From Streptomyces humicola (GTDB lineage Bacteria > Actinomycetota > Actinomycetes > Streptomycetales > Streptomycetaceae): a stretch of 57,345 bases of DNA. Of the stretch, positions 22,243 through 31,654 are shown piece after piece; within the stretch, counting starts at the first letter, position 1, and each line of letters starts with the position of its first letter. The position numbers and the translations under genes are program-made. The notes under the pieces were generated by a model. That model made no database searches. It was not told where the DNA came from and was given only the letters and a program-made list of their open reading frames with translations. The DNA is taken from contig NZ_JANFNG010000038.1 in the NCBI RefSeq assembly GCF_024436035.1, positions 1-57,345 on the forward strand. Reading direction: 5' to 3'.

Positions 22243-22543
22243 GGTGGCGCCGTCCTCCTCGAAACCGGGGGCGTCATTCCCATTGTCCCGTGTCGCGGAG
22301 GGAAACGGCAGGTCGGAGGTGGTCCGGCGAGGGCCTGCCACTGCTCGGAGGTGGTCGTGGCCACGATGGTCCCGGCGGTCCCGGTGGTCTCGCGGGGTCG
22401 GCACAGCGGGCTGCATTCACCGATGCTCGCAAGCAAGTTTGAATCACGGGTAACGAGCACATGGCGCACAGGAAAGCGCGGCACGTCCCGCGGGAGGACT
22501 CCTGGGGTACCGGGTACCGGGTACCGGGCGCCGGGCGTCGACG
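22243..22543. other. Intergenic region between ppk and mshD with a GGGTACC repeat
   Basis: 301 nt carrying the leftward ppk promoter region. A tandem 7-nt repeat GGGTACC lies at 22505-22525 (three exact copies). No convincing PHO box was found; only loose GTTACCC and ATTCAAA-like blocks occur on the minus strand around 22435-22455. No open reading frame here has a ribosome binding site. Confidence 0.6.
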
Positions 22544-23473
22544 TCAGAGCTCGGTGCGGTACATGAGGTCGACCTCGTGGACGGTGAAGCCGAGCCGCTC
22601 GTACACCGTCACCGCCGCGGTGTTGTCGGCGTCCACATAGAGCATCGCCGTGGGCATGCCCCGGTCGTACGCCAGATGGCGCAGGCCGATCAGCGTCAGC
22701 GCCCTGCCCAGCCCCGAGCCCTGCTCCGACGGGTGCACGCCGAGGACGTACACCTCGCCGAGCTCCTCGGCGGCATGGACCTTCGTCCAGTGGAAACCGA
22801 CGACCTCCGGCCCCCTGAGAGCGAGAAAGAAACCGTCCGGGTCGAACCAGGGCTGCGCGATGCGGTCATCCAGGTCACGCTGGGTGAGCGAGCCCTGCTC
22901 GGGGTGGTGGGCGAAGGCGGCGGCGTTCACCGCGAGCCAGGAGGCGTCGTCCTGCCCGGGCACGAACGTACGGACGGTGACGCCCGCCGGGAGAGCGGGC
23001 TCGGCGAGTGGCGGATCGCCCGGCAACGGCCGCCGCATCTGCCGCAGCTCCCGGAAGAGCGCGAGCCCCAGCTGCGCCGCCAGATGCCGTGCGGCGGGGT
23101 GGCCGCCGTGCGCCCACACGCGCAGCCGCTTGTCCGACGCGTCCAGCAGCGCATGCCCGAGTGTGCGGCCGTGGCCACGCCCCCGGTGCCGCGGGTGTAC
23201 GACGAGCTCCGCCGCCGGCGCCTCCACCGGATCGACGTCCTCCAACTGCGCGTACCCGACCAGCTCTTCACCTGCGTAGAGCACCAGGTGCCGCACCCCG
23301 GGCCGCCGCCCTCCGCGCAGATTGAGCCGCCCCTGCTCCGACACCGCCGCCTGCCCGTCGGCGGCCGCGGCCTGCCCGATGAGATCGTTCAAGACCTGCG
23401 CGATCCCGGCCGGCACGTCGTCGAAAGTCTCGATCCGCCGCGGTCCGGGGGGAAGCTGTACGGGGTCGGTCAT
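22544..23473 (-). CDS. mshD: Mycothiol synthase MshD
   Basis: 309 aa, the expected length, made of two tandem GNAT domains. Acetyl-CoA-binding signatures are seen in both: HPRHRGRGHGRTLGHALL (N-terminal) and VHPSEQGSGLGRALTLIGL (C-terminal). The WFDPDGFFLAL and VDADNTAAVTVYERLGF stretches are characteristic of MshD, which acetylates Cys-GlcN-Ins in the last step of mycothiol synthesis. It stands alone, leftward, with an ATG at 23473 lacking a strong ribosome binding site. Confidence 0.95.
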   Translation of the reverse strand: MTDPVQLPPGPRRIETFDDVPAGIAQVLNDLIGQAAAADGQAAVSEQGRLNLRGGRRPGVRHLVLYAGEELVGYAQLEDVDPVEAPAAELVVHPRHRGRGHGRTLGHALLDASDKRLRVWAHGGHPAARHLAAQLGLALFRELRQMRRPLPGDPPLAEPALPAGVTVRTFVPGQDDASWLAVNAAAFAHHPEQGSLTQRDLDDRIAQPWFDPDGFFLALRGPEVVGFHWTKVHAAEELGEVYVLGVHPSEQGSGLGRALTLIGLRHLAYDRGMPTAMLYVDADNTAAVTVYERLGFTVHEVDLMYRTEL

Positions 23474-23786
23474 GACTACGAGTTTAACGATCCCAGGGCT
23501 AACGAGCGGCGGGTGGGGGCGCGTTGGACCGTGCGAAACGTGTGAGAGGGGCCGACTCGGCACGGATGGAGGGGAAACGTTTATGCCGTAAGAAATGAAT
23601 AAGGAATTTGAGGCGGACGTCATTTCTGAGAAATGGAATCACCGTAATCTCATGCGCCTCTCATTGGTTTCCGCGTCCGCGGCCGGTGCCGCCGGGTAAC
23701 GTTTTGTGCGTCGCGACAGAAAAGGCCAAGTGCCGAAAGGCCGAGCGCCGAATAATCGAAACCTTGTCCATCCGAAGGAGATCGCC
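23474..23786 (+). promoter_or_regulatory. AT-rich upstream region of basic peptide A, with a shared regulatory dyad
   Basis: 313 nt without a gene and noticeably AT-richer than its surroundings. A 26-nt dyad-like block (23627-23652) begins TGAGAAATG and ends TAATCTCA. Further down, GGTAACGTTTT (23695-23705) resembles a promoter. Both blocks recur upstream of peptide B (26016-26041 and 26084-26095) at exactly the same spacing: 52 nt from the T of TAATCTCA to the T of TAA(C/T)G. This is strong evidence for a common control region. Confidence 0.65.
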
Positions 23787-23924
23787 GTGATCGTCCGTAA
23801 GATCGCCCGCTTCGTCCCCGCCACCGACCGCCGGGTCGTCTCCCGTCAAGGTGAGGGCTTCGGCCGGGGTGAGGGCCGCGGACGCAGGGTCATCATCCGC
23901 CGTCACCGTCGCCACCACGGCTGA
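23787..23924 (+). CDS. Small Arg-rich basic peptide A (paralogue of peptide B)
   Basis: 45 aa from a GTG start with an excellent ribosome binding site (GAAGGAG, 6 nt upstream). It has 13 Arg, 1 Lys and 3 His against 3 acidic residues. N-terminal half: IVRKIARFVPATDRRVV; C-terminal half: EGRGRRVIIRRHRRHHG. It aligns with peptide B (26159-26305): R4, I6, R8, V10, P11, R15, V17 and V18 are identical without gaps, as is the block EGRGRRV. No Cys, leader-cleavage motif, signal peptide or membrane helix is present. Its own terminator follows. It could be a nucleic-acid-binding, antimicrobial or secreted peptide; no known family was recognised. Confidence 0.75.
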   Translation: MIVRKIARFVPATDRRVVSRQGEGFGRGEGRGRRVIIRRHRRHHG

Positions 23925-23948
23925 GCCTGCTTGACGGCAACGCACTGC

Positions 23949-23980
23949 GGGCCCACGGCGCGATGCCGTGGGCCCTTTTC
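23949..23980 (+). terminator. Intrinsic terminator after basic peptide A
   Basis: An 11-bp perfect stem (23949-23959 with 23965-23975), loop GCGAT, is followed by TTTTCTCT. It lies 24 nt after the peptide stop and 26 nt before the ABC exporter start, making a short monocistronic peptide mRNA with possible read-through into the exporter. Confidence 0.85.
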
Positions 23981-24001
23981 TCTGTCGCCGCGGGAGCACC
24001 G

Positions 24002-25963
24002 ATGAACGCCTACGAAGACCAACGGACCGTCGAACTGCGCCGCGTAGACGCACCCGGCGCACCCGGCGCACCCGGCGAGTACGACGGGTACGCCGACGCC
24101 ACGATCGAACTGCGCGCGGTGCCCGCGGCCGTCGAGCCCGGCACGCTCGCCGCACCCGTCGAAGCCGCCGCACCCGCCGCCGGAGATGCTGCGGCCGCTC
24201 CGGCCCCCGCCGTCCGCCTCTCGGCACGTGAAGCATTCGGCCGCTTCTGGCCGTTGACCAAGGGCGACCGGCCGCGGCTGGCCCTGGTCTGCCTGTGCAT
24301 CGTGCTCGGCGTGCTCGGCGAGACCGCCGCGATCCTCCTGTTCGGCGAGATCACCGACACCGCGCTGCGCGCCGGTTCCGTCTCCGCGTTCTGGCGCCCG
24401 GCGGAGCAGTGGATCGCGCTCACCGTCGTCGGCGCGATCACCGGGTACCTCGGCAACTGGCTCGCGGCATGGACCGCCGAGCGCTTCGTGATGCGCCTGC
24501 GCGCCCGTGTCTTCAGCCACGTCCAGGAGCTGCCGCCCGACTTCTTCGGCCGCCACCGCCTCGGCGACCTCGTCGAGCGGCTCACCGGCGACATCGACGC
24601 GATCGAGCAGATGGTCGTCTCGGGCGTCGTCGGTGCCGTCTCGGCCGTCTTCAGCGTGCTCTTCTTCTCCGCGGCCGCCATCTGGATGCGCTGGGACCTG
24701 GCCGTCGCCACCTTCGCGCTCGCCCCGCTCTTCTGGCTGGCCGCCCGTCGCTTCTCCGGCCGCATCAAGACCGTCTCGCGGCAGGAGCGTGCCTCGGACG
24801 GCGCGATCACCTCGATCGTCGAGGAGTCGCTCAGCAACGTGCTGCTCACCCAGGCCTACAACCGCAAGAGCGCGGAGGAGCAGCGGCTGGCGCGCGAGGC
24901 CCGTACATGGATGCGCGCCTCCGTCACCGGCGCCCGGCTGAGCGAGCTTTACCAGCAGATCGTGGTGGTCGTCGAGACGGTGTGCGTGCTGGCCGTCATC
25001 GGCCTGGGCGCGTGGGAGATCTCCGCGCACCGGATGACGCTCGGCGAGCTGCTCGCCTTCGCCGCGTTCATGGGCTACCTGTACCCGCCGATCCAGTCCC
25101 TCGGCCACCTCGGCCTGACGTTCACGGCGGCGACGGCCGGCGCCGAGCGGCTGGTGGAGATCCTCGACGCACAGCCCGCGGTCAGCGACCCGGCTCCCGG
25201 AGCGGGCCCGGTACCGGAACGGGCCCATGGACACGTCGAGTTCAATGCCGTCGGCTTCCGCTACCCGGGAGCCGAGGCCGACGCCCTGCGCGGTGTGTCC
25301 TTCGCCGCGCGCCCCGGAGAGTTGGTGATCGTCACGGGGGCGAGCGGAGCGGGCAAGTCCACGGTCTCCAAGCTGCTCCTGCGCTTCTACGACCCGGACG
25401 CGGGCGGTGTCACGCTGGACGGCCACGACCTGTCCCGGCTCCCCCTCGCCTTCGTCCGTGAACAGATCACCCTGCTCCCGCAACAGACCCTGATCCTCCA
25501 CGACACGATCGCCGCGAACATCGCCTGCGGACGGCCGGGCGCGACGCGGCACGAGATCGTCGGCGCCGCCCGCGCCGCCGACGCCCACGACTTCATCGCG
25601 GCCCTCCCGGACGGTTACGACACGCGCATCGACGCGCACACCGCCCACCTCTCCGGCGGCCAGCTCCAACGCATCGCCATCGCGCGCGCGATGCTGCGCC
25701 AAGCGCCCGTCCTGGTCCTCGACGAACCCACGACCGGCCTCGACGCCCTCGCCGCACGCCGCGTGATCGAACCGCTGCGCCGCCTGATGTCCGGCCGCAC
25801 GACGATCATGATCACCCACGACCTCAACCTCGCGCCGGATGCCGACCGCATCCTCGTCCTCGACCGGGGCCACCTCGTTGAGACGGGCACGCACGCGGAG
25901 CTGCTGGCGTGGGGCGGCGCGTACGCGCGGTTGCACGCCTCACAGAACGGCGGGCGCGGCTGA
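24002..25963 (+). CDS. ABC exporter half-transporter (fused permease-ATPase)
   Basis: 653 aa. A hydrophilic N-terminal extension of about 80 residues, rich in Ala/Pro, carries two similar pieces (VELRRV and IELRAV). Six membrane helices follow (about 95-370), then the nucleotide-binding domain: Walker A TGASGAGKST (about 445-454), signature LSGGQLQR (about 550), Walker B VLVLDEPTTGLD (about 570), switch His in ITHD (about 606). It belongs to the type IV/B-family exporters; no C39 peptidase domain is present. It should act as a homodimer pumping a drug, lipid or peptide out. Its location between two paralogous basic peptides makes peptide export a testable idea, not a conclusion. Confidence 0.92.
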   Translation: MNAYEDQRTVELRRVDAPGAPGAPGEYDGYADATIELRAVPAAVEPGTLAAPVEAAAPAAGDAAAAPAPAVRLSAREAFGRFWPLTKGDRPRLALVCLCIVLGVLGETAAILLFGEITDTALRAGSVSAFWRPAEQWIALTVVGAITGYLGNWLAAWTAERFVMRLRARVFSHVQELPPDFFGRHRLGDLVERLTGDIDAIEQMVVSGVVGAVSAVFSVLFFSAAAIWMRWDLAVATFALAPLFWLAARRFSGRIKTVSRQERASDGAITSIVEESLSNVLLTQAYNRKSAEEQRLAREARTWMRASVTGARLSELYQQIVVVVETVCVLAVIGLGAWEISAHRMTLGELLAFAAFMGYLYPPIQSLGHLGLTFTAATAGAERLVEILDAQPAVSDPAPGAGPVPERAHGHVEFNAVGFRYPGAEADALRGVSFAARPGELVIVTGASGAGKSTVSKLLLRFYDPDAGGVTLDGHDLSRLPLAFVREQITLLPQQTLILHDTIAANIACGRPGATRHEIVGAARAADAHDFIAALPDGYDTRIDAHTAHLSGGQLQRIAIARAMLRQAPVLVLDEPTTGLDALAARRVIEPLRRLMSGRTTIMITHDLNLAPDADRILVLDRGHLVETGTHAELLAWGGAYARLHASQNGGRG

Positions 25964-26015
25964 ACGCGGCTGAATTCTTATCCGTCCCCTACTGCTCGCG
26001 GTTCCCGCGATTCAA

Positions 26016-26100
26016 TGAGAACTGAAATCAGGTTAATCTCAGCCGCAATTCACTGAAATCGGCCACCGAGGACCGGAAATGCGGTTAATGTTTTTCCTGT
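26016..26100 (+). promoter_or_regulatory. Upstream control region of basic peptide B, matching that of peptide A
   Basis: The block 26016-26041 (starting TGAGAACTG, ending TAATCTCA) matches 23627-23652 at 21 of 26 positions. TTAATGTTTTT (26085-26095) matches TAACGTTTT upstream of peptide A. The spacing between the two blocks is identical in both copies. It sits about 60-140 nt before the peptide B start. Confidence 0.65.
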
Positions 26101-26158
26101 CGAAGCCGGAAAGGCGGAGACAGGGAAATACTCGAAGCCTTCAAATGAGGAGAACACC

Positions 26159-26305
26159 ATGGCCATCCGCACCATCACCCGCATCGTCCCCGTCGCCGGC
26201 CGCCACGTCGTTGCCGCCGACGACAAGCGCCCGATGTCCTTCCGCCGGAGCGAGGGCCGTGGCCGCCGGGTCGTCGTCCGCCACCGTCGCTACGACGCTC
26301 GCTGA
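26159..26305 (+). CDS. Small Arg-rich basic peptide B (paralogue of peptide A)
   Basis: 48 aa from ATG with GAGGAG 7 nt upstream. N-terminal half: MAIRTITRIVPVAGRHVV; C-terminal half: EGRGRRVVVRHRRYDAR. It has 13 Arg, 1 Lys and 2 His against 4 acidic residues. The middle (DDKRPMSFRR) differs from peptide A, whereas both ends are conserved, as is the ribosome binding site and upstream control region. No signal peptide, Cys or membrane helix is present. A 16-bp terminator follows 29 nt after the stop. The conservation of two separated blocks suggests selection on the peptide rather than chance. Function unknown. Confidence 0.75.
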   Translation: MAIRTITRIVPVAGRHVVAADDKRPMSFRRSEGRGRRVVVRHRRYDAR

Positions 26306-26334
26306 GCGCGAACAGTCGGCTGACCCCCCAACCC

Positions 26335-26373
26335 GAGGCGGGGCCCGCGGCATTGCGCCGCGGGCCCCGCCTC
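26335..26373 (+). terminator. Terminator after basic peptide B
   Basis: A 16-bp perfect stem (26335-26350 with 26358-26373) encloses the 7-nt loop CATTGCG. There is no U-tract. It closes the short peptide B transcript. Confidence 0.85.
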
Positions 26374-26527
26374 GTTGCTCCGCCTCGGCCTGACCGAGGT
26401 CGCCCAGTCATGGAGCTCGGGAAGCCGAGAGGGAGGGGCACGGTGCTGTGACGCAACCGGGGCTACCACCGTCCACTGGTCGGTAGGCTTCCCATGAGGC
26501 GAACCGAACAGGTAAGGCAGGCACGCC

Positions 26528-26887
26528 ATGAGCACACCACAGGTACCGTCCGGGCAACCTGGCGAGCTGATTCCCCGGCCCCAGCGCACTCCAGACGCCC
26601 TGCGCCTCGCGCTGGCCCGCATCGCCCCGCATCGCCTCGGCGAAATGGACCGGCAGAAAGACGAGGCGTTCGCACTCGCGGCACAGCACGACACCCTGGC
26701 CCCCATCCACCAGTGGCTTTCCGTCTGGGCGGGCGAGGTGGAGATCGAGCGCCGCCCGGACCTCTCGCAGCGCCGCCGCCACGCCGAGCAGGCATGCCAG
26801 ACACTCGACCGGGACGATCCGTCCTGGCGGGCGGCCATGGACGAAGTGCTCGCGGTAGTGAACGAGGCCCGGCGGGCGGCCGCGTGA
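26528..26887 (+). CDS. DUF6247-family protein (putative antitoxin)
   Basis: 119 aa, soluble, helical. The layout PRPQRTPDALRLALARIAP, then MDRQKDEAFALAAQHDTLAPIHQWLSVWAGEVEIERRPD, matches DUF6247 proteins, which in streptomycetes are usually followed directly by a short RelE/ParE-like gene. Here too the next reading frame encodes a RelE-like protein whose expected start overlaps this stop codon. On that basis it is the likely antitoxin. The partner is frameshifted (see 26884-27134), so the pair may no longer be a working toxin-antitoxin system. Confidence 0.75.
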   Translation: MSTPQVPSGQPGELIPRPQRTPDALRLALARIAPHRLGEMDRQKDEAFALAAQHDTLAPIHQWLSVWAGEVEIERRPDLSQRRRHAEQACQTLDRDDPSWRAAMDEVLAVVNEARRAAA

Positions 26888-27134
26888 CCTCGGCTGGGAG
26901 TACGACCCGAGCGAGCAGCACGTGATCGGGGACGCCCCGCCTGCCCTGGTCGCCGAGGTGGAAAAGCGGGCGGATGAGCTGGTTCGCGCCGCCGAGGCCT
27001 TGCACATCGAGGGCACTGCCTACTCCGGCTACTCGCCGAACGGTGGGACGGCACTCGTTCCGGGCGGCATGTTCGAATACCAGGTCATTCCTCGGCACGA
27101 GCGGGTGTACATCCTTCAAATGACAGCCTGGTAG
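26884..27134 (+). pseudogene. RelE/ParE-like toxin, frameshifted at its start
   Basis: The 3' part is open and typical of short RelE-type toxins: VAEVEKRADELVRAAEALHIEGTAYSGYSP, ending PRHERVYILQMTAW. Upstream in the same frame, LGWEYDPSEQH looks like the family's N-terminus, but no start codon precedes it before stop codons at 26856 and 26859. The expected GTG overlaps the DUF6247 stop at 26884 and lies one base out of frame: GTG ACC T then CGGCTGGGAGTAC. A single lost base between start and CGGCTGG would explain this. A GTG at 26922 could give a 70-aa truncated protein. Probably inactive. Confidence 0.6.
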
Positions 27135-27143
27135 GCCGAGTCC

Positions 27144-27500
27144 TCAACCTAGGCGCCTCACGCAGTTCCGTGCCCAGGCCTGGACCCAGTTGAGGTCGCG
27201 GTGGAACGGGCCGTGGCGCTCACGTTCGTTGTCGAGGCGGATGTCGACGACCTCGAAGTCCGCGCGGGTGAGCAGGGCGCGAGCGGTGGCGACTTGAAGC
27301 AGGGTGGCCATCGACCACACCCCGGCGATGCTCGCGTCGCCGAAGCGCAGCGCGCGCACGTCCATCTCCTCGAAGCGGAGCCCGGGGTGGAGTGCGCGCG
27401 CACGCGCGATGAAGCTCGCCGTCAGGTCGATCCCGACAACGTCGAGCCCCGCGCGCCGCGAGCCGAGGCGCGGCCCACGGCCGGTCGGCGCGGCACCGCG
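27144..27500 (-). pseudogene. Internally deleted SAM-dependent methyltransferase remnant
   Basis: On the minus strand a class I methyltransferase core is visible: GLDVVGIDLTASFIARARALHPGL with the acidic ribose-binding position, followed by MDVRALRFGDASIAGVWSMATLLQV. The next residues jump directly to a C-terminal segment (LLTRADFEVVDIRLDNE, then WVQAWARNC). Roughly 60-70 residues of the Rossmann core that should lie between are missing, with the junction near 27285. The glycine-rich motif I is also eroded (GRGPRLGSRRAG). No ribosome binding site is evident. It is best read as a decaying gene. Confidence 0.55.
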
Positions 27501-27877: not shown

Positions 27878-29287
27878 TTACTCGTCGGATTCCGGCGGAG
27901 CCGTGGGGGTGCCCGGGAGGTTGACCACCGCAGTCGTGCCGCCGCCCGGAGCCGGGTGGAGTGCGACGGCGCCGCCCGCCTGCTGGATGGTTCGTGCGAC
28001 GATGGACAGGCCGAGGCCGGAGCCGGGCAGGCTACGGGCGGACGGGGAGCGCCAGAAGCGCTCGAAGACGTGCGGGAGGTCCTCGGCGGGAATGCCGGGG
28101 CCGTGGTCGCGCACGGTCAGTTCGCCGCCCGCCAGGTGCACCTCGATGCTCCCGCCCGGCGGGCTGAACTTCACCGCGTTGTCGAGCAAGTTGACGACGG
28201 CGCGTTCGAGCGAGGCCGGCTCGGCCTCGACGTACCAGGGGGAGAGCTCCGCGGCGATCTTCAGGTCGGGGCCGCGCAACCGGGCGCGCTTCAAAGCGTG
28301 TTCGATCACGTCGTGCAGGCCCACGGTCTGGACCGGGCCGCTGCCGGGTAGGGCGTCGGGGCGCGAGAGTTCCTGCAAGTCGCCAATGAGCAGGGCGAGC
28401 TCCGACATCTGCGCCTTGACGGACGCCATCAGCGCCCTGCGGTCCTCGGGCGGCAGCGGACGTCCCGTCTCCTCGCTGCGGCTGAGCAGCTCGATGTTGG
28501 TGCGCAGTGAGGTGAGCGGGGTGCGCAGCTCGTGCCCCGCGTCGGCGATCAGCTGCTGCTGGCGCTCGCGCGAGGAGGCGAGGGCCGCGGTCATGGAGTT
28601 GAACGAGGCCGACAGGCGCGCGATCTCGTCTTCACCCTCGACGGGGATGCGGACCTCCAGGTCCTCGGTGCGCGCGATGTGTTCGACGGCGTCGGTGAGC
28701 CGGTCGACGGGCTTGAGCCCGGCGCGGGCGATGCCGAGGCCGGCCGTGGTGGCGCCGACGACTCCTATCCCGGCGACGATGAACAGGACGACGGCAAGGG
28801 CGTCGAGGGGACGCTCGACGGCGTTGAGTGGGGCGGCGATGGACAGTGCGGCGCCGGGCACGAGCCCGCTGGGCAGACGCAAGGGTTGGGTGACCACCCG
28901 CGCGTTTGCGCCGTTCGAGAGGGTGGTGTCGCGTTCAGTCTCCTGCCGCTGACCTGTGGCTACGGCGATGTCGCTGCTGGTGACACGGAAGGTCACCGCA
29001 TCAGGGTCCGGGTCTTTGCAGACGGTGCCATCGGACCGGACGATCTGGACCGCATACTCACTGGGGCGGAGTGGGATCCCAGACTGGGGGTTGCACAGAG
29101 CCTCGACGAGCGTGCCACTGACGTGCTGGCCCTCCTTCAGCTGCGAATCGAACTGCGCAAGCACTTCTTCCCGGGTGACCAGCCACGACGTAATGGCGAC
29201 GATCGCCACCGCCACCGCCACCGCGACGCCCGTCAGCAGCGCCAGGCGCGAGCGCAGCGGCAACGAGCGGAAGCGCCACCGTCTCAC
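27878..29287 (-). CDS. cssS: Sensor histidine kinase of the htrA-linked two-component system (CssS/MprB-like)
   Basis: 469 aa. Two membrane helices (about 16-37 and 161-185) bracket an external sensor domain of about 120 aa. Then come HAMP, HisKA with the phospho-acceptor His in [13 protein letters not shown] (about 251), and a HATPase with the N box [16 protein letters not shown], and GSGLGLSI. The GTG start overlaps the regulator's stop in GTGA. With a trypsin-like HtrA protease in the same leftward run, it matches the secretion-stress CssRS of Streptomyces (and MprAB of mycobacteria). The signal is presumably misfolded envelope protein; that is inferred from relatives. Confidence 0.88.
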
Positions 29288-30024
29288 TGCTTGCCCTCCG
29301 CGGCGCGGAGCACGTAGCCGACGCCCCGAACCGTGTGGACGAGGCGCGGCATGCCGCCCGCCTCGGTCTTGCGGCGCAGGTACATCACGTACACATCGAG
29401 GGAGTTGGAGCTCGGCTCGAAGTCGAAGCCCCAGACCGCCTTCAGGATCTGTTCGCGGGTGAGCACCTGGCGCGGATGGGCCATGAACAGTTCGAGCAGC
29501 GTGTATTCGGTGCGCGTGAGCTCGATGAGGTTGCCCGCGCGCGTCACCTCCCGGGTTGCGGGGTCCATGCGCAGGTCGGCGAAGGTGAGCGCGGCACTGG
29601 TGCCCTGGTCGGCGGCGGCGGCTGCCGCCGCGTACGAGCTGCGGCGCAGCAGGGCGCGCAGTCGCGCGAGCAGCTCGTCGAGCTCGAAGGGTTTGACGAG
29701 GTAGTCGTCGGCGCCGGCGTCGAGGCCGGTGACGCGGTCGCCGACCGTGTCGCGGGCGGTGAGCATGAGGATGGGCGTGGTCACGCCACTCGCGCGCAGC
29801 CGGCGGGCGGTGGTCAGTCCGTCCATGCGCGGCATGAGCACGTCGAGAACGATCGCGTCGGGGTGACAGGCCTCGACCTGTTCGATCGCGGCGAGGCCGT
29901 CCGCGGCCAGCTCGGTCTCGTACCCCTCGAAGGCGAGGCTGCGGCGGATCGCCTCGCGTACCGCGGGTTCGTCGTCCACGACCAGGATCCGGGACGGCTG
30001 TTCGCCGCTCTCGGCGGGGCTCAT
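29284..30024 (-). CDS. cssR: OmpR-family response regulator (CssR/MprA-like)
   Basis: 246 aa. Receiver domain with Asp-pocket DDE (17-19), phospho-acceptor Asp61 ([11 protein letters not shown]), and Lys111 (LVKPF); winged-helix output domain with [23 protein letters not shown] and the recognition helix [14 protein letters not shown] linker rich in Ala separates the domains. Coupled to the kinase gene by a 4-nt overlap. GAGGTAG lies 8 nt before the ATG. Target genes probably include the htrA upstream, as in the S. lividans/S. coelicolor CssRS system. Confidence 0.9.
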
Positions 30025-30128
30025 CGCGTTGCTACCTCGTGCCTTGTGTGTGTGATCGGGGTGTGTGTGATCCGGGGGCTGATTCGGAGGGTACGGCAAC
30101 GGGCGTCTGGGGTGCCCCATGCCGACGG

Positions 30129-30395
30129 CTAGGGGCGCGTTGCCGCCGCGCGGCGACGCCCCGCCCGCTTGGCGGCGGTACGCCCACGGGGACGCGCGGT
30201 GCCGGGACCGGCCAGCTCCGCGGGGCGTGACGCCTGGGGGAGCGTGAGCACGAGGTCCAGGTCGGCGGGGCCGGTGCGGTTCGTACGGTGCTCCCAACGG
30301 CTCACCTTGGTGACGACGGCGTTGAGGGCACGCCGGGCGCGGTGGGCCGAGACGGTGAGTGTGCTGGGTGACGCGGTGAGTGACGGTGTGGCCAT
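30129..30395 (-). CDS. Small basic protein inside the htrA-cssRS run
   Basis: 88 aa. It begins [41 protein letters not shown], continues with a short central segment [14 protein letters not shown], and ends in an Arg/Ala-rich tail ([21 protein letters not shown]). AAGGAG sits 7 nt before the ATG, so it is certainly a translatable gene. No signal peptide or membrane helix was seen. Co-oriented between htrA (33 nt after... its stop is upstream by 41 nt) and the response regulator (104 nt downstream). The basic tail suggests nucleic-acid or polyanion binding, otherwise unknown. Confidence 0.7.
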
Positions 30396-30436
30396 GAGGG
30401 GCTCCTTCGTCCCGGTTTCGACCCGGTTCGTCCCGG

Positions 30437-31507
30437 TCAGGTGTTGCTGCCGTTCTCCAGGCTGTTCAGGTCGGCCTTGGCGGTGTTGATCGGGATGGCG
30501 AAGCCGAGCCCGACACTGCCGGCGTTGCTGGAGCCGGAGGAGTAGCTGCTGGAATTGGGCGAGTACATCGCGGAGTTGATGCCGATCACCTGGCCGGCCG
30601 TGTTGATCAGGGCGCCGCCGGAGTTGCCGGGGTTGAGCGAGGCGTCGGTCTGGATCGCCTTGTACGTGGTGGTGTTGCCGCCGACCTGGCCGTTGTACTG
30701 ACCGCCACCGAAGGAGAACGGCCACTGGTTGCCGCTGCGACCGCCGTAGCCGCCGCCACTGTTGCCCGTCTCCACGGGGACCGTCACGTCACGGCCCAGC
30801 GCGGAGACGACGCCGCTGGTGACCGTGCCCGCGAGGCCGTCGGGCGAGCCGATCGCCACGACCTGGTCGCCGACCGCGACGGCGTCGGAGTTGCCGAGCG
30901 CGGCGGGCTTGAGGCCGCTGACGCCCTCGGCCTTGACCACCGCGAGGTCCTTGGTGCTGTCGGTGCCGACGACCTTCGCGTTCGCGGTGTTGCCGTTGCT
31001 GAACGTGATCTTGATGGTGTCGGCGCCCGCGATCACGTGGTTGTTGGTGAGGATGGTGCCGTCGGAGGAGAGGATCACGCCGGAGCCGATCGACTCGTCG
31101 CTGGCGGAGTCCGCAGTGATCTCGACGATGCTGGGGGAGACCGCGGCGGCCACCGCTGCGATGCTGCCGCCGGACTTCGATGAGGTCGGGGTGACGACGG
31201 CGGAGGTGTCGGTCGAGGTGGTGTGCGTCGAGTTCGCTATGAGCGCCGCCGTGCCGCCGCCTATCAGGCCGGAGACGATGGCGACCGCGGCGAGCAGCGC
31301 AACGGGCTTGCGTGCCTTGGCCGGACGCTCCGGCGCGCCGAGGGGCTGCGCCTGGGCCGACGGGTGGGCCCACGGGTCCTGCGCCGGACGTTGCGGCTGG
31401 GTCGCCCACGGGTCCGCGTACGGCTGGTGGGGCTGCTGAGGCTGGTGAGGCTGGTGAGGCCCTCCGGGCTGCTGCGAGCCGCTGCTGGGGTAGTTGCTGT
31501 CCGTCAT
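30437..31507 (-). CDS. htrA: HtrA-like trypsin-family serine protease, PDZ-less
   Basis: 356 aa. A cytoplasmic Pro/Gln/His-rich tail (repeated PHQP) is followed by one membrane helix (about 68-91) and an external protease domain. The catalytic triad is intact: His157 (TNNHVIAG), Asp187 (TKDLAVV) and Ser296 ([10 protein letters not shown]). The protein stops about 45 residues after the catalytic Ser motif region, so the PDZ domain usual in HtrA is absent. It should degrade misfolded exported proteins. Located upstream of the two-component genes that in relatives control it. Confidence 0.88.
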
Positions 31508-31654
31508 GGCACTGACTCTGATCGCCGATCATGAGAGCTGTCTGAGTGGTGGCTGAGAAGCCCAAGAGAAGTAGGTATGCCCGAAATAAGGGCGCAGTGG
31601 CACGTGTGCGCCCAGGGGCCTGGCCGCCCCGGGTGTCCCCGGCACCGCATACGT

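What the first reader, a model, noticed from the sequence alone, without database searches (positions are those of the whole stretch)
23787..26305. Two paralogous Arg-rich micropeptides flanking an ABC exporter
Peptide A (45 aa, 23787-23924) and peptide B (48 aa, 26159-26305) align along their N-terminal 18 residues without gaps (R4, I6, R8, V10, P11, R15, V17, V18 identical) and share EGRGRRV plus an R-rich end. Each has a strong ribosome binding site and its own terminator. I recognise no family. They lack Cys, a cleavable leader or signal peptide, so classical RiPP or bacteriocin classes do not fit. A duplicated peptide gene on both sides of an exporter suggests a secreted or self-protecting peptide system, or a small RNA/DNA-binding pair.
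Basis: partly seen in the sequence, partly recalled or inferred. Interest (0 to 1): 0.85.

Follow-up and report, generated by a model that had tools for sequence, protein, structure and literature searches.

The report
Stress-linked cationic peptides with their exporter
Two tiny, strongly positively charged proteins beside a membrane pump turn out to belong to a large, apparently undescribed set of short peptide genes that soil actinomycetes keep next to one particular kind of exporter, and here they seem to be switched on together with the cell's response to misfolded secreted proteins.

Summary
In detail: peptides A (23787-23924) and B (26159-26305) are related short genes with ribosome sites and hairpin terminators. 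They are not a local oddity. Of 122 distinct relatives of the intervening ABC exporter with enough upstream sequence, 111 have a short, strongly basic ORF with a ribosome site upstream on the same strand (107 with the shared start pattern), against 5 of 123 on the downstream side and 2 of 25 for other ABC exporters. Some loci have tandem copies, up to five. Starts are conserved, tails are low-complexity and diverse, tail type follows the exporter tree, and codons of the relatives show purifying selection. The exporter clade has its own conserved acidic residues inside membrane helices. A promoter repeat learned from htrB promoters of 28 other genomes ranks htrB, A and B far above everything else in the window. 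The neighbouring kinase, regulator and protease look like CssS, CssR and HtrB, the secretion-stress system, whose regulon is stated to be undefined. Best reading: leaderless polycationic peptides exported by a dedicated ABC transporter and, here, induced by secretion stress. Export, CssR binding and activity outside the cell are inferred, not shown.

The parts
23637..23664 (+). operator-like triple repeat upstream of peptide A: AATCAC-N5-TCTCAT-N5-TCTCAT (11-bp period)
   Evidence: second best distinct site of 114,636 positions in the window with a half-site matrix learned from htrB promoters of 28 other genomes; one of 9 exact pattern matches in 7.07 Mb; a related site in the genus sibling L073
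23775..23780 (+). Shine-Dalgarno AAGGAG of peptide A
23787..23924 (+). peptide A, 45 aa, net charge +11, GTG start
   Evidence: A-like gene at the same place in L073
23949..23975 (+). terminator hairpin between peptide A and the exporter (12 bp stem, TTTT)
24002..25963 (+). ABC exporter (half-transporter of the MsbA/P-gp kind, no C39 peptidase domain); clade-specific membrane glutamates E107 and E325
26026..26053 (+). operator-like triple repeat upstream of peptide B: AATCAG-N5-TCTCAG-N5-ATTCAC
   Evidence: third best distinct site in the window; exact pattern match
26086..26091 (+). -10-like TAATGT inside a core promoter shared with peptide promoters of Streptomyces relatives
   Evidence: 18 of 22 positions identical to the string seen in relatives; calling it a -10 is inference, the sigma-70 scan found none
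26148..26152 (+). Shine-Dalgarno AGGAG of peptide B
26159..26305 (+). peptide B, 48 aa, net charge +10
26334..26374 (+). terminator-like hairpin after peptide B (18 bp stem)
27878..29287 (-). histidine kinase, CssS-like (HAMP 186-236, HisKA, HATPase_c; its only two cysteines, 65 and 90, lie before HAMP)
   Evidence: two conserved sensor-domain cysteines are described for CssS in PMC12802291
29284..30297 (-). response regulator, CssR-like (ORF as listed; the receiver domain begins at residue 104, so the true start probably lies further in)
30437..31507 (-). trypsin-like protease, HtrB-like
31531..31558 (-). triple repeat of the htrB promoter, TCTCAG-N5-ACTCAG-N5-TCTCAT (candidate CssR box)
   Evidence: best site in the window; the same block in 29 of 30 htrB upstream regions

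Best explanation
A and B encode leaderless, disordered, strongly cationic peptides that are the cargo of the ABC exporter between them. The unit is one case of a widespread actinomycete cassette: one to five short peptide genes with a conserved N-terminal segment and a fast-changing, usually basic low-complexity tail, in many cases followed by a hairpin that would let peptide mRNA exceed exporter mRNA, then a dedicated exporter whose membrane domain carries clade-specific acidic residues. In the window and in many Lys/Pro/Ala-type relatives the peptide promoter carries an 11-bp-period triple repeat that is also the hallmark of the htrB promoter, so the neighbouring CssRS-like secretion-stress system probably switches peptides and HtrB on together. 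Outside the cell the peptides most likely act on anionic envelopes, either as antimicrobial peptides released when the envelope is damaged (favoured, about 0.4) or as a protective polycation or anti-aggregation agent for the producer's own wall and misfolded secreted proteins (about 0.3). Shown: genes, linkage, selection on relatives, exporter features, shared repeat. Inferred: disorder, export, CssR binding, extracellular role.
For: Linkage: 111 of 122 distinct exporters tested have an upstream cationic ORF, 107 with the start pattern; downstream side of the same set 5 of 123 and 3 of 123, one of them B; other ABC exporters from four genomes 2 of 25 and 0 of 25. Linkage survives changes of neighbouring genes and is seen in Actinoallomurus, Actinomadura, a Streptosporangiaceae MAG and Pseudonocardia. 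Two or more pattern peptides in 14 of 122 loci under the strict filter, up to five. Coding: pN/pS below 1 in 30 of 35 independent pairs of relatives, median 0.50; first ten residues pN 0.052 against pS 0.144; tail 0.192 against 0.257; GC3 0.92. Tail class needs 16 changes on the exporter tree, shuffled mean 55.3, none of 200 as low. Exporter: E107 (helix 1) acidic in 100% of the clade against 11% of controls, E325 (helix 5) 99% against 0%, membrane-domain net charge +1.6 against +8.8 (122 clade rows, 25 controls of which 18-19 have a residue at these columns); Pro-type exporters add a short acidic N-terminal tail, median net charge -7 in 60. Regulation: best three distinct sites in the window are htrB, A and B; they are 3 of the 9 exact matches in the whole genome, reversed-pattern control 1; a cssS relative (over 40% identity) or htrB lies within the fetched flank in 19 of 35 Lys/Pro/Ala-type loci.
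Against: No expression, secretion or activity data. Selection was measured on relatives, not on A and B. Tail classes cannot be aligned with each other, so common descent of all peptides rests on position, start pattern and exporter phylogeny. Not all are cationic: L027 has net charge -4, L209 -1, L210 0. The linkage thins out with distance: at 46-50% exporter identity 11 of 16 loci show a pattern peptide, a 48% identical exporter of the own genome (L288) shows none, nor does L207. The triple repeat is over the shuffled 99th percentile in 26 of 57 upstream regions of the Lys/Pro/Ala type (later copies of an array counted as misses), 17 of 60 of the Pro type and 0 of 12 of the Arg/Gly type, so CssR control cannot be general. 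The core promoter string matches B (18 of 22) but not A (13 of 22, the level of unrelated regions). If the htrB start point reported for S. venezuelae (17 bases after the CutR site) holds here, the repeat would lie just downstream of it, odd for an activator site; its distance from the TTTAT element is 31 bases in 20 of 21 regions. The acidic N-terminal tail of the exporter is not seen as a median in the other classes.
Confidence: 0.65

Rival explanations
1. The short ORFs are regulatory leader peptides: ribosomes slowed by proline or basic stretches control transcription or translation of the exporter in cis.
For: Upstream position on the same strand in 111 of 122 loci, polyproline and polybasic tails, hairpin of at least 9 bp behind the last peptide gene in 46% of 127 loci against 2.4% of shuffles.
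Against: B lies downstream of the exporter with its own operator-like repeat, core promoter string and hairpin; arrays of up to five; Gly/Arg/Tyr tails without evident stalling logic; purifying selection strongest at the N terminus rather than at the C-terminal end.
Confidence: 0.08
2. The peptides stay inside and bind nucleic acid or polyphosphate (a gene that looks like ppk lies nearby); the exporter moves something else, such as a lipid or drug.
For: Arg/Lys-rich tails resemble histone-like tails (recalled); genes that look like ppk and mshD (names recalled, the latter a GNAT protein by Pfam) are neighbours in the window; the exporter is close to MsbA and P-gp by sequence.
Against: The constant partner across contexts is the exporter; mshD is found in the fetched flank of only 16 of 124 distinct loci. 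Acidic residues in the exporter's membrane helices and its lower positive charge fit a basic cargo. Tail type follows exporter type.
Confidence: 0.13
3. A signalling or morphogenetic peptide sensed by the producer itself, for instance through the neighbouring CssS-like kinase, rather than a toxin or protectant.
For: A CssS-like kinase or htrB in reach in 19 of 35 Lys/Pro/Ala-type loci; shared repeat.
Against: Low-complexity, fast-changing tails in several copies are unusual for a specific ligand; 1 of 57 Pro-type and 0 of 11 Arg/Gly-type loci have such genes in the fetched flank.
Confidence: 0.14

Closest known systems
Leaderless bacteriocins with a dedicated ABC exporter (recalled: aureocin A53, lacticin Q)
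   Same: short cationic peptides without leader or signal sequence, several copies possible, linked exporter
   Different: no sequence family match; long low-complexity tails instead of a folded helical bundle (recalled); no immunity gene was identified, though none was searched for systematically; antibacterial activity untested
Linear cationic host-defence peptides of animals (recalled: proline-rich, Trp/Arg-rich, His-rich, Gly-rich classes)
   Same: the tail classes seen here are of similar composition, including Arg/Trp/Cys-rich ones in another family (L283, L284)
   Different: bacterial, leaderless, beside an ABC exporter rather than with a signal peptide; likeness is of composition only and from memory
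CssRS secretion-stress regulon of Streptomyces (htrB, htrA1, htrA2)
   Same: the A and B promoters carry the repeat found in the htrB promoter, and a cssRS-htrB-like trio is next door
   Different: known members are proteases (PMC3498368, passages); the regulon is stated to be undefined in PMC12802291 (passages); the passages read mention no micropeptide
Double-glycine-leader bacteriocins and RiPPs with C39 peptidase exporters
   Same: peptide plus ABC exporter
   Different: no leader and no Cys in A or B, no C39 domain found, no modification enzyme among the window neighbours examined

Membership tests
leaderless bacteriocin | no leader or signal peptide, no modification enzyme beside the gene | tested here: met
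   sequences of A and B; window neighbours by Pfam; neighbours of the relatives were clustered but not named
leaderless bacteriocin | genetic linkage to a dedicated exporter | tested here: met
   111 of 122 distinct exporters; downstream side 5 of 123; other ABC exporters 2 of 25
leaderless bacteriocin | match to a described bacteriocin family | tested here: not met
   no NCBIfam hit for A, B and four relatives, no Pfam hit for A and B or five of six relatives; the sixth, an Arg/Gly peptide, has two hits below cut-off
leaderless bacteriocin | antibacterial activity of the unmodified peptide | not testable with these tools
   needs synthetic peptide and growth assays
RiPP or class II bacteriocin with cleaved leader | double-glycine leader and C39 peptidase exporter | tested here: not met
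   no leader in A or B; no C39 domain among the Pfam hits of the exporter
CssR regulon | promoter carries the repeat shared by htrB promoters | tested here: met
   best three distinct sites of the window are htrB, A, B with a matrix trained on other genomes; 29 of 30 htrB upstream regions carry the block
CssR regulon | CssR binds and activates the promoter | not testable with these tools
   that CssR reads the repeat is inference from htrB being a CssR target in S. lividans (PMC3498368 and PMC12802291, passages); the window trio was not compared with named CssRS sequences
regulatory leader peptide (attenuator) | lies in cis upstream of the gene it controls | tested here: not met
   met for A, not for B, which is downstream of the exporter with its own promoter-like region and hairpin
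known structured RNA element | Rfam match in the region | tested here: not met
   no match up to E 1 in 22500-27500

The most novel reading that the evidence does not exclude
Actinomycetes carry a large, undescribed class of exported, intrinsically disordered polycationic peptides, each type with its own co-evolved, acid-lined ABC exporter, and at least one branch is a secretion-stress output: when exported proteins misfold, CssRS releases both a protease (HtrB) and polycationic peptides that act outside the cell as weapon, shield or extracellular chaperone. The same repeat would then define the so far undefined CssR regulon.
Probability: 0.4. Interest if true: 0.87.

Novelty: new variant of a known kind. 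Interest (0 to 1): 0.76.

Why it matters
It turns two apparently orphan micropeptides into members of a recurrent gene cassette that none of the family libraries searched names, offers more than a hundred natural cationic peptides for testing, ties them to one exporter clade with its own sequence signature, and gives a sequence-level candidate for the CssR binding site, which the 2025 study of CutRS and CssRS names as an open question (PMC12802291, passages).

Tried and rejected
Direct protein searches with B alone found only A and B: own genome, two genus genomes, 394 family genomes (four weak hits inside frames of 218-656 codons, taken as chance), plasmids (a Lys/Pro/Ala composite likewise nothing), genome contigs. 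The tails diverge too fast; anchoring on the exporter was what worked. Rfam gave nothing and the sigma-70 scan no promoter. A first scan for TCTCAGNNNNAATT with two mismatches showed no excess in the window (4 matches, 8.9 expected); only the later matrix trained on htrB promoters separated the sites. Ribosomal or housekeeping protein: no family match. CutR as the regulator: its site TAWATAAA (PMC12802291) is a different sequence. A consensus of the mycobacterial MprA box was looked for in print and not found.

Paper searches gave no listing that describes such peptides (listings and abstract starts only; none of those papers was opened; only the openly licensed part of PubMed Central is held). 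Papers opened: PMC12802291 (abstract, passages), PMC3498368 (passages), PMC6833217 (passages, not used), PMC5855569 (passages, not used).

Slips and dropped rows: an early control had the minus-strand loci of the genome search in the wrong orientation; it was redone and its count (1 of 25) is not used. The control exporters are 25 of the 30 loci returned (5 orthologues removed), anchored at the membrane domain rather than the start codon. The tree still holds four wrongly oriented rows (L028, L029, L041, L042) as long branches outside the clade; they and L034 were dropped. Five tail labels (L073, L133, L194, L211, L209) were set by hand and L029's was removed. Shuffles keep base but not dinucleotide composition.
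Full report
What is there. Peptides A (23787-23924, GTG start) and B (26159-26305, ATG start) exist as described, each behind a good Shine-Dalgarno sequence and each followed by a strong hairpin, at 23949-23975 and 26334-26374. Their likeness is more than chance: 8 identities in residues 2-18, reached by 60 of 200,000 shuffles, and a shared seven-residue word in the tails, reached by 2 of 20,000. Between them lies a half-size ABC exporter, 24002-25963, with ABC_membrane and ABC_tran domains and no C39 peptidase hit; its best matches among solved structures are P-glycoproteins and plant ABCB proteins, followed by MsbA. A and B match no Pfam, NCBIfam or PHROGs family.

Why simple searches fail. 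With B as query only A and B come up in the own genome, and 394 family genomes give nothing convincing. Using the exporter as anchor gives 53 of 394 family genomes with a close relative at E 1e-200 or better and 80 loci from named genomes, the best of 324 candidates and a capped list. These are mostly Streptomyces and Actinacidiphila and, more distantly, Actinoallomurus, Actinomadura, Pseudonocardia and a few others.

The recurrent cassette. Upstream of most of these exporters, on the same strand, sit one to five short ORFs with good ribosome sites. After removing duplicates 124 exporters remain, 122 with at least 400 bases upstream; 111 of 122 have an ORF of 30-75 codons with net charge +7 or more outside larger genes within 1000 bases, 107 of them with the start pattern. 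Of the 11 misses, peptides are visible with looser filters in L080, L103, L107 and L113, L166 and L194 and L124; L074 has a 26-residue version and L162 one with an altered, barely basic tail; L190 and L197 have none. Two controls: on the downstream side of the same exporters 5 of 123 have a cationic ORF and 3 the pattern, B among them; 25 other ABC exporters from four genomes give 2, none with the pattern. Two or more pattern peptides occur in 14 of 122 loci. At 46-50% exporter identity 11 of 16 loci have a pattern peptide (one of the five misses, L032, has little upstream sequence). Two loci of family code f17 and one of f26 carry short Arg-rich ORFs at the same place, but with other starts (L283-L285). 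Another exporter of the own genome at 48% identity (L288) has none with the pattern, nor has the metagenome locus L207.

Anatomy of the peptides. The first ten or so residues follow a loose rule, M-S-F-x-K-[I/V/L]-x-P in many (window: MIVRKIARFVP, MAIRTITRIVP); the tails are low-complexity and fall into rough classes: Lys/Pro/Ala, Pro-rich with Lys, Arg/His, Arg/Gly with Tyr or Trp. A few are not cationic (L027 net charge -4, L209 -1, L210 0). The relatives are coding: in 35 independent pairs pN/pS is below 1 in 30, median 0.50, the N-terminal part is more constrained than the tail, and GC at third positions is 0.92. Tail class follows exporter phylogeny: 16 changes on a tree of 135 rows against a shuffled mean of 55.3 (four rows in that tree are wrongly oriented and fall outside the clade; five labels were set by hand; the shuffles show clustering only).

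Why export is the likely fate. The exporter is the constant partner while other neighbours change. Compared with 25 control exporters the clade has acidic residues where controls do not, two of them in the middle of very hydrophobic stretches: E107 (100% against 11% of 18) and E325 (99% against 0% of 19); the membrane domain's net charge is +1.6 against +8.8 (122 clade rows). Exporters of the Pro class also carry a short acidic N-terminal tail, median net charge -7 over 60, which the other classes lack as a median (start codons were chosen by rule). A hairpin of at least 9 bp follows the last peptide gene in 46% of 127 loci against 2.4% of shuffles, which could give many peptides per exporter. 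In the arrays shown in the cut listing only the first copy has the conserved promoter, so arrays read as operons.

Regulation. Upstream of many peptides of the Lys/Pro/Ala class lies a conserved string TAATGTTTTCCATGTCGAAAGC; B has 18 of these 22 bases although it lies downstream of the exporter, while A has only 13, the level of unrelated regions. In front of it stand direct repeats TCTCAG-N5-ATTCAT-N5-TCTCAG. The htrB promoter next door has the same layout. In 29 of 30 htrB upstream regions (the 30 best of 97 genomes with a hit) the block TCTCAG-N6-CTCAG-N5-TCTCAT is intact; the thirtieth, L244, is the genus sibling, where the start was placed wrongly, and one search shows the block there too. 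A half-site matrix made from 28 htrB promoters, window and sibling left out, was run over both strands of the window: of 114,636 positions the best distinct places are htrB (30.5), A (21.8) and B (14.3); the next unrelated one scores 7.7. In the whole 7.07-Mb genome a pattern of this kind has 9 matches, three of them these; the reversed pattern has 1. The kinase-regulator-protease trio at 27878-31507 has the order and domain make-up of cssS-cssR-htrB; it was not compared with named CssRS sequences. CssRS was defined in S. lividans as SCO4156-SCO4155 and is needed for expression of htrB, htrA1 and htrA2 (PMC3498368, passages); the 2025 study states that the CssR regulon is not yet defined and that CssS has two conserved sensor cysteines (PMC12802291, abstract and passages); the window kinase has exactly two cysteines, 65 and 90, both before the HAMP domain.

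Limits of the regulatory reading. A cssS relative above 40% identity or htrB is in the fetched flank (4 or 6 kb) in 19 of 35 Lys/Pro/Ala loci, 2 of 10 Arg/His, 1 of 57 Pro-type and 0 of 11 Arg/Gly-type loci; the Actinomadura loci L202-L204 are among these with kinase identities of 42-55%, so they may be paralogues. The repeat itself is over threshold in 26 of 57, 17 of 60 and 0 of 12 upstream regions of the Lys/Pro/Ala, Pro and Arg/Gly classes. CssR control is therefore proposed for the window and its near kin, not for the whole class. If the S. venezuelae start point (17 bases after the CutR site) holds, the htrB repeat would lie just downstream of it, which would be unusual for an activator; the spacing from the TTTAT element to the repeat is 31 bases in 20 of 21 regions measured.

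How it probably works. Misfolded secreted protein activates CssS; CssR turns on htrB and the peptide genes; the peptides, made in excess over the exporter, are recognised by their N-terminal segment and basic character, pass the acid-lined membrane domain, and act outside on anionic surfaces. Whether they kill competitors, shield the wall or hold misfolded proteins soluble cannot be decided from sequence. The composition classes recall animal linear antimicrobial peptides (from memory, not tested), which tips the balance towards a weapon; control by secretion stress speaks for a protective role.

Rivals. A cis-acting leader peptide is hard to square with B's position, with arrays of five and with the selection pattern. 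An intracellular nucleic-acid or polyphosphate binder does not explain the exporter. A self-sensed signal is possible where the kinase is near.

Novelty. I found no described family for these peptides in the libraries searched and no paper in the listings. The kind (leaderless peptide plus dedicated exporter) is known; the hypervariable polycationic tails, the exporter signature and the link to secretion stress are not, as far as these searches go.

Noticed in passing
window 31531-31558 (-) and L243, L245-L272: A triple TCTCAG-type repeat with 11-bp period is intact in 29 of 30 htrB upstream regions examined: a candidate CssR box that could be used to predict the undefined CssR regulon.
   Followed up: partly
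G000 contigs C3, C6, C7, C11, C22, C30 (L273-L278): Six further matches to the repeat pattern elsewhere in the own genome. Two (L277, L278) were glanced at; the one on C30 lies beside what looks like the start of infB. None was assessed as a regulon candidate.
   Followed up: partly
L099 and L107, upstream of the exporter: Five tandem peptide genes with near-identical starts and differing tails.
   Followed up: partly
L283 and L284, about 75-195 bases upstream of the exporter: Arg/Trp/Cys-rich peptides (39 and 37 aa) before exporters of another actinobacterial family at about 50% identity.
   Followed up: no
Pro-type loci such as L081, L090, L154: Their exporters begin with a short Asp/Glu/Tyr-rich tail, opposite in charge to the neighbouring peptide; a possible docking arm.
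   Followed up: partly
window 26528-26887 (+): Small ORF after peptide B with a sub-threshold match to DUF6247 (E 0.00055).
   Followed up: no
L027, L031, L209, L210, upstream of exporters at 46-50% identity: Peptides with the same start pattern but Arg/Asp/Gly or His/Asp repeats and little or no net charge: basic charge is not what unites the class.
   Followed up: no
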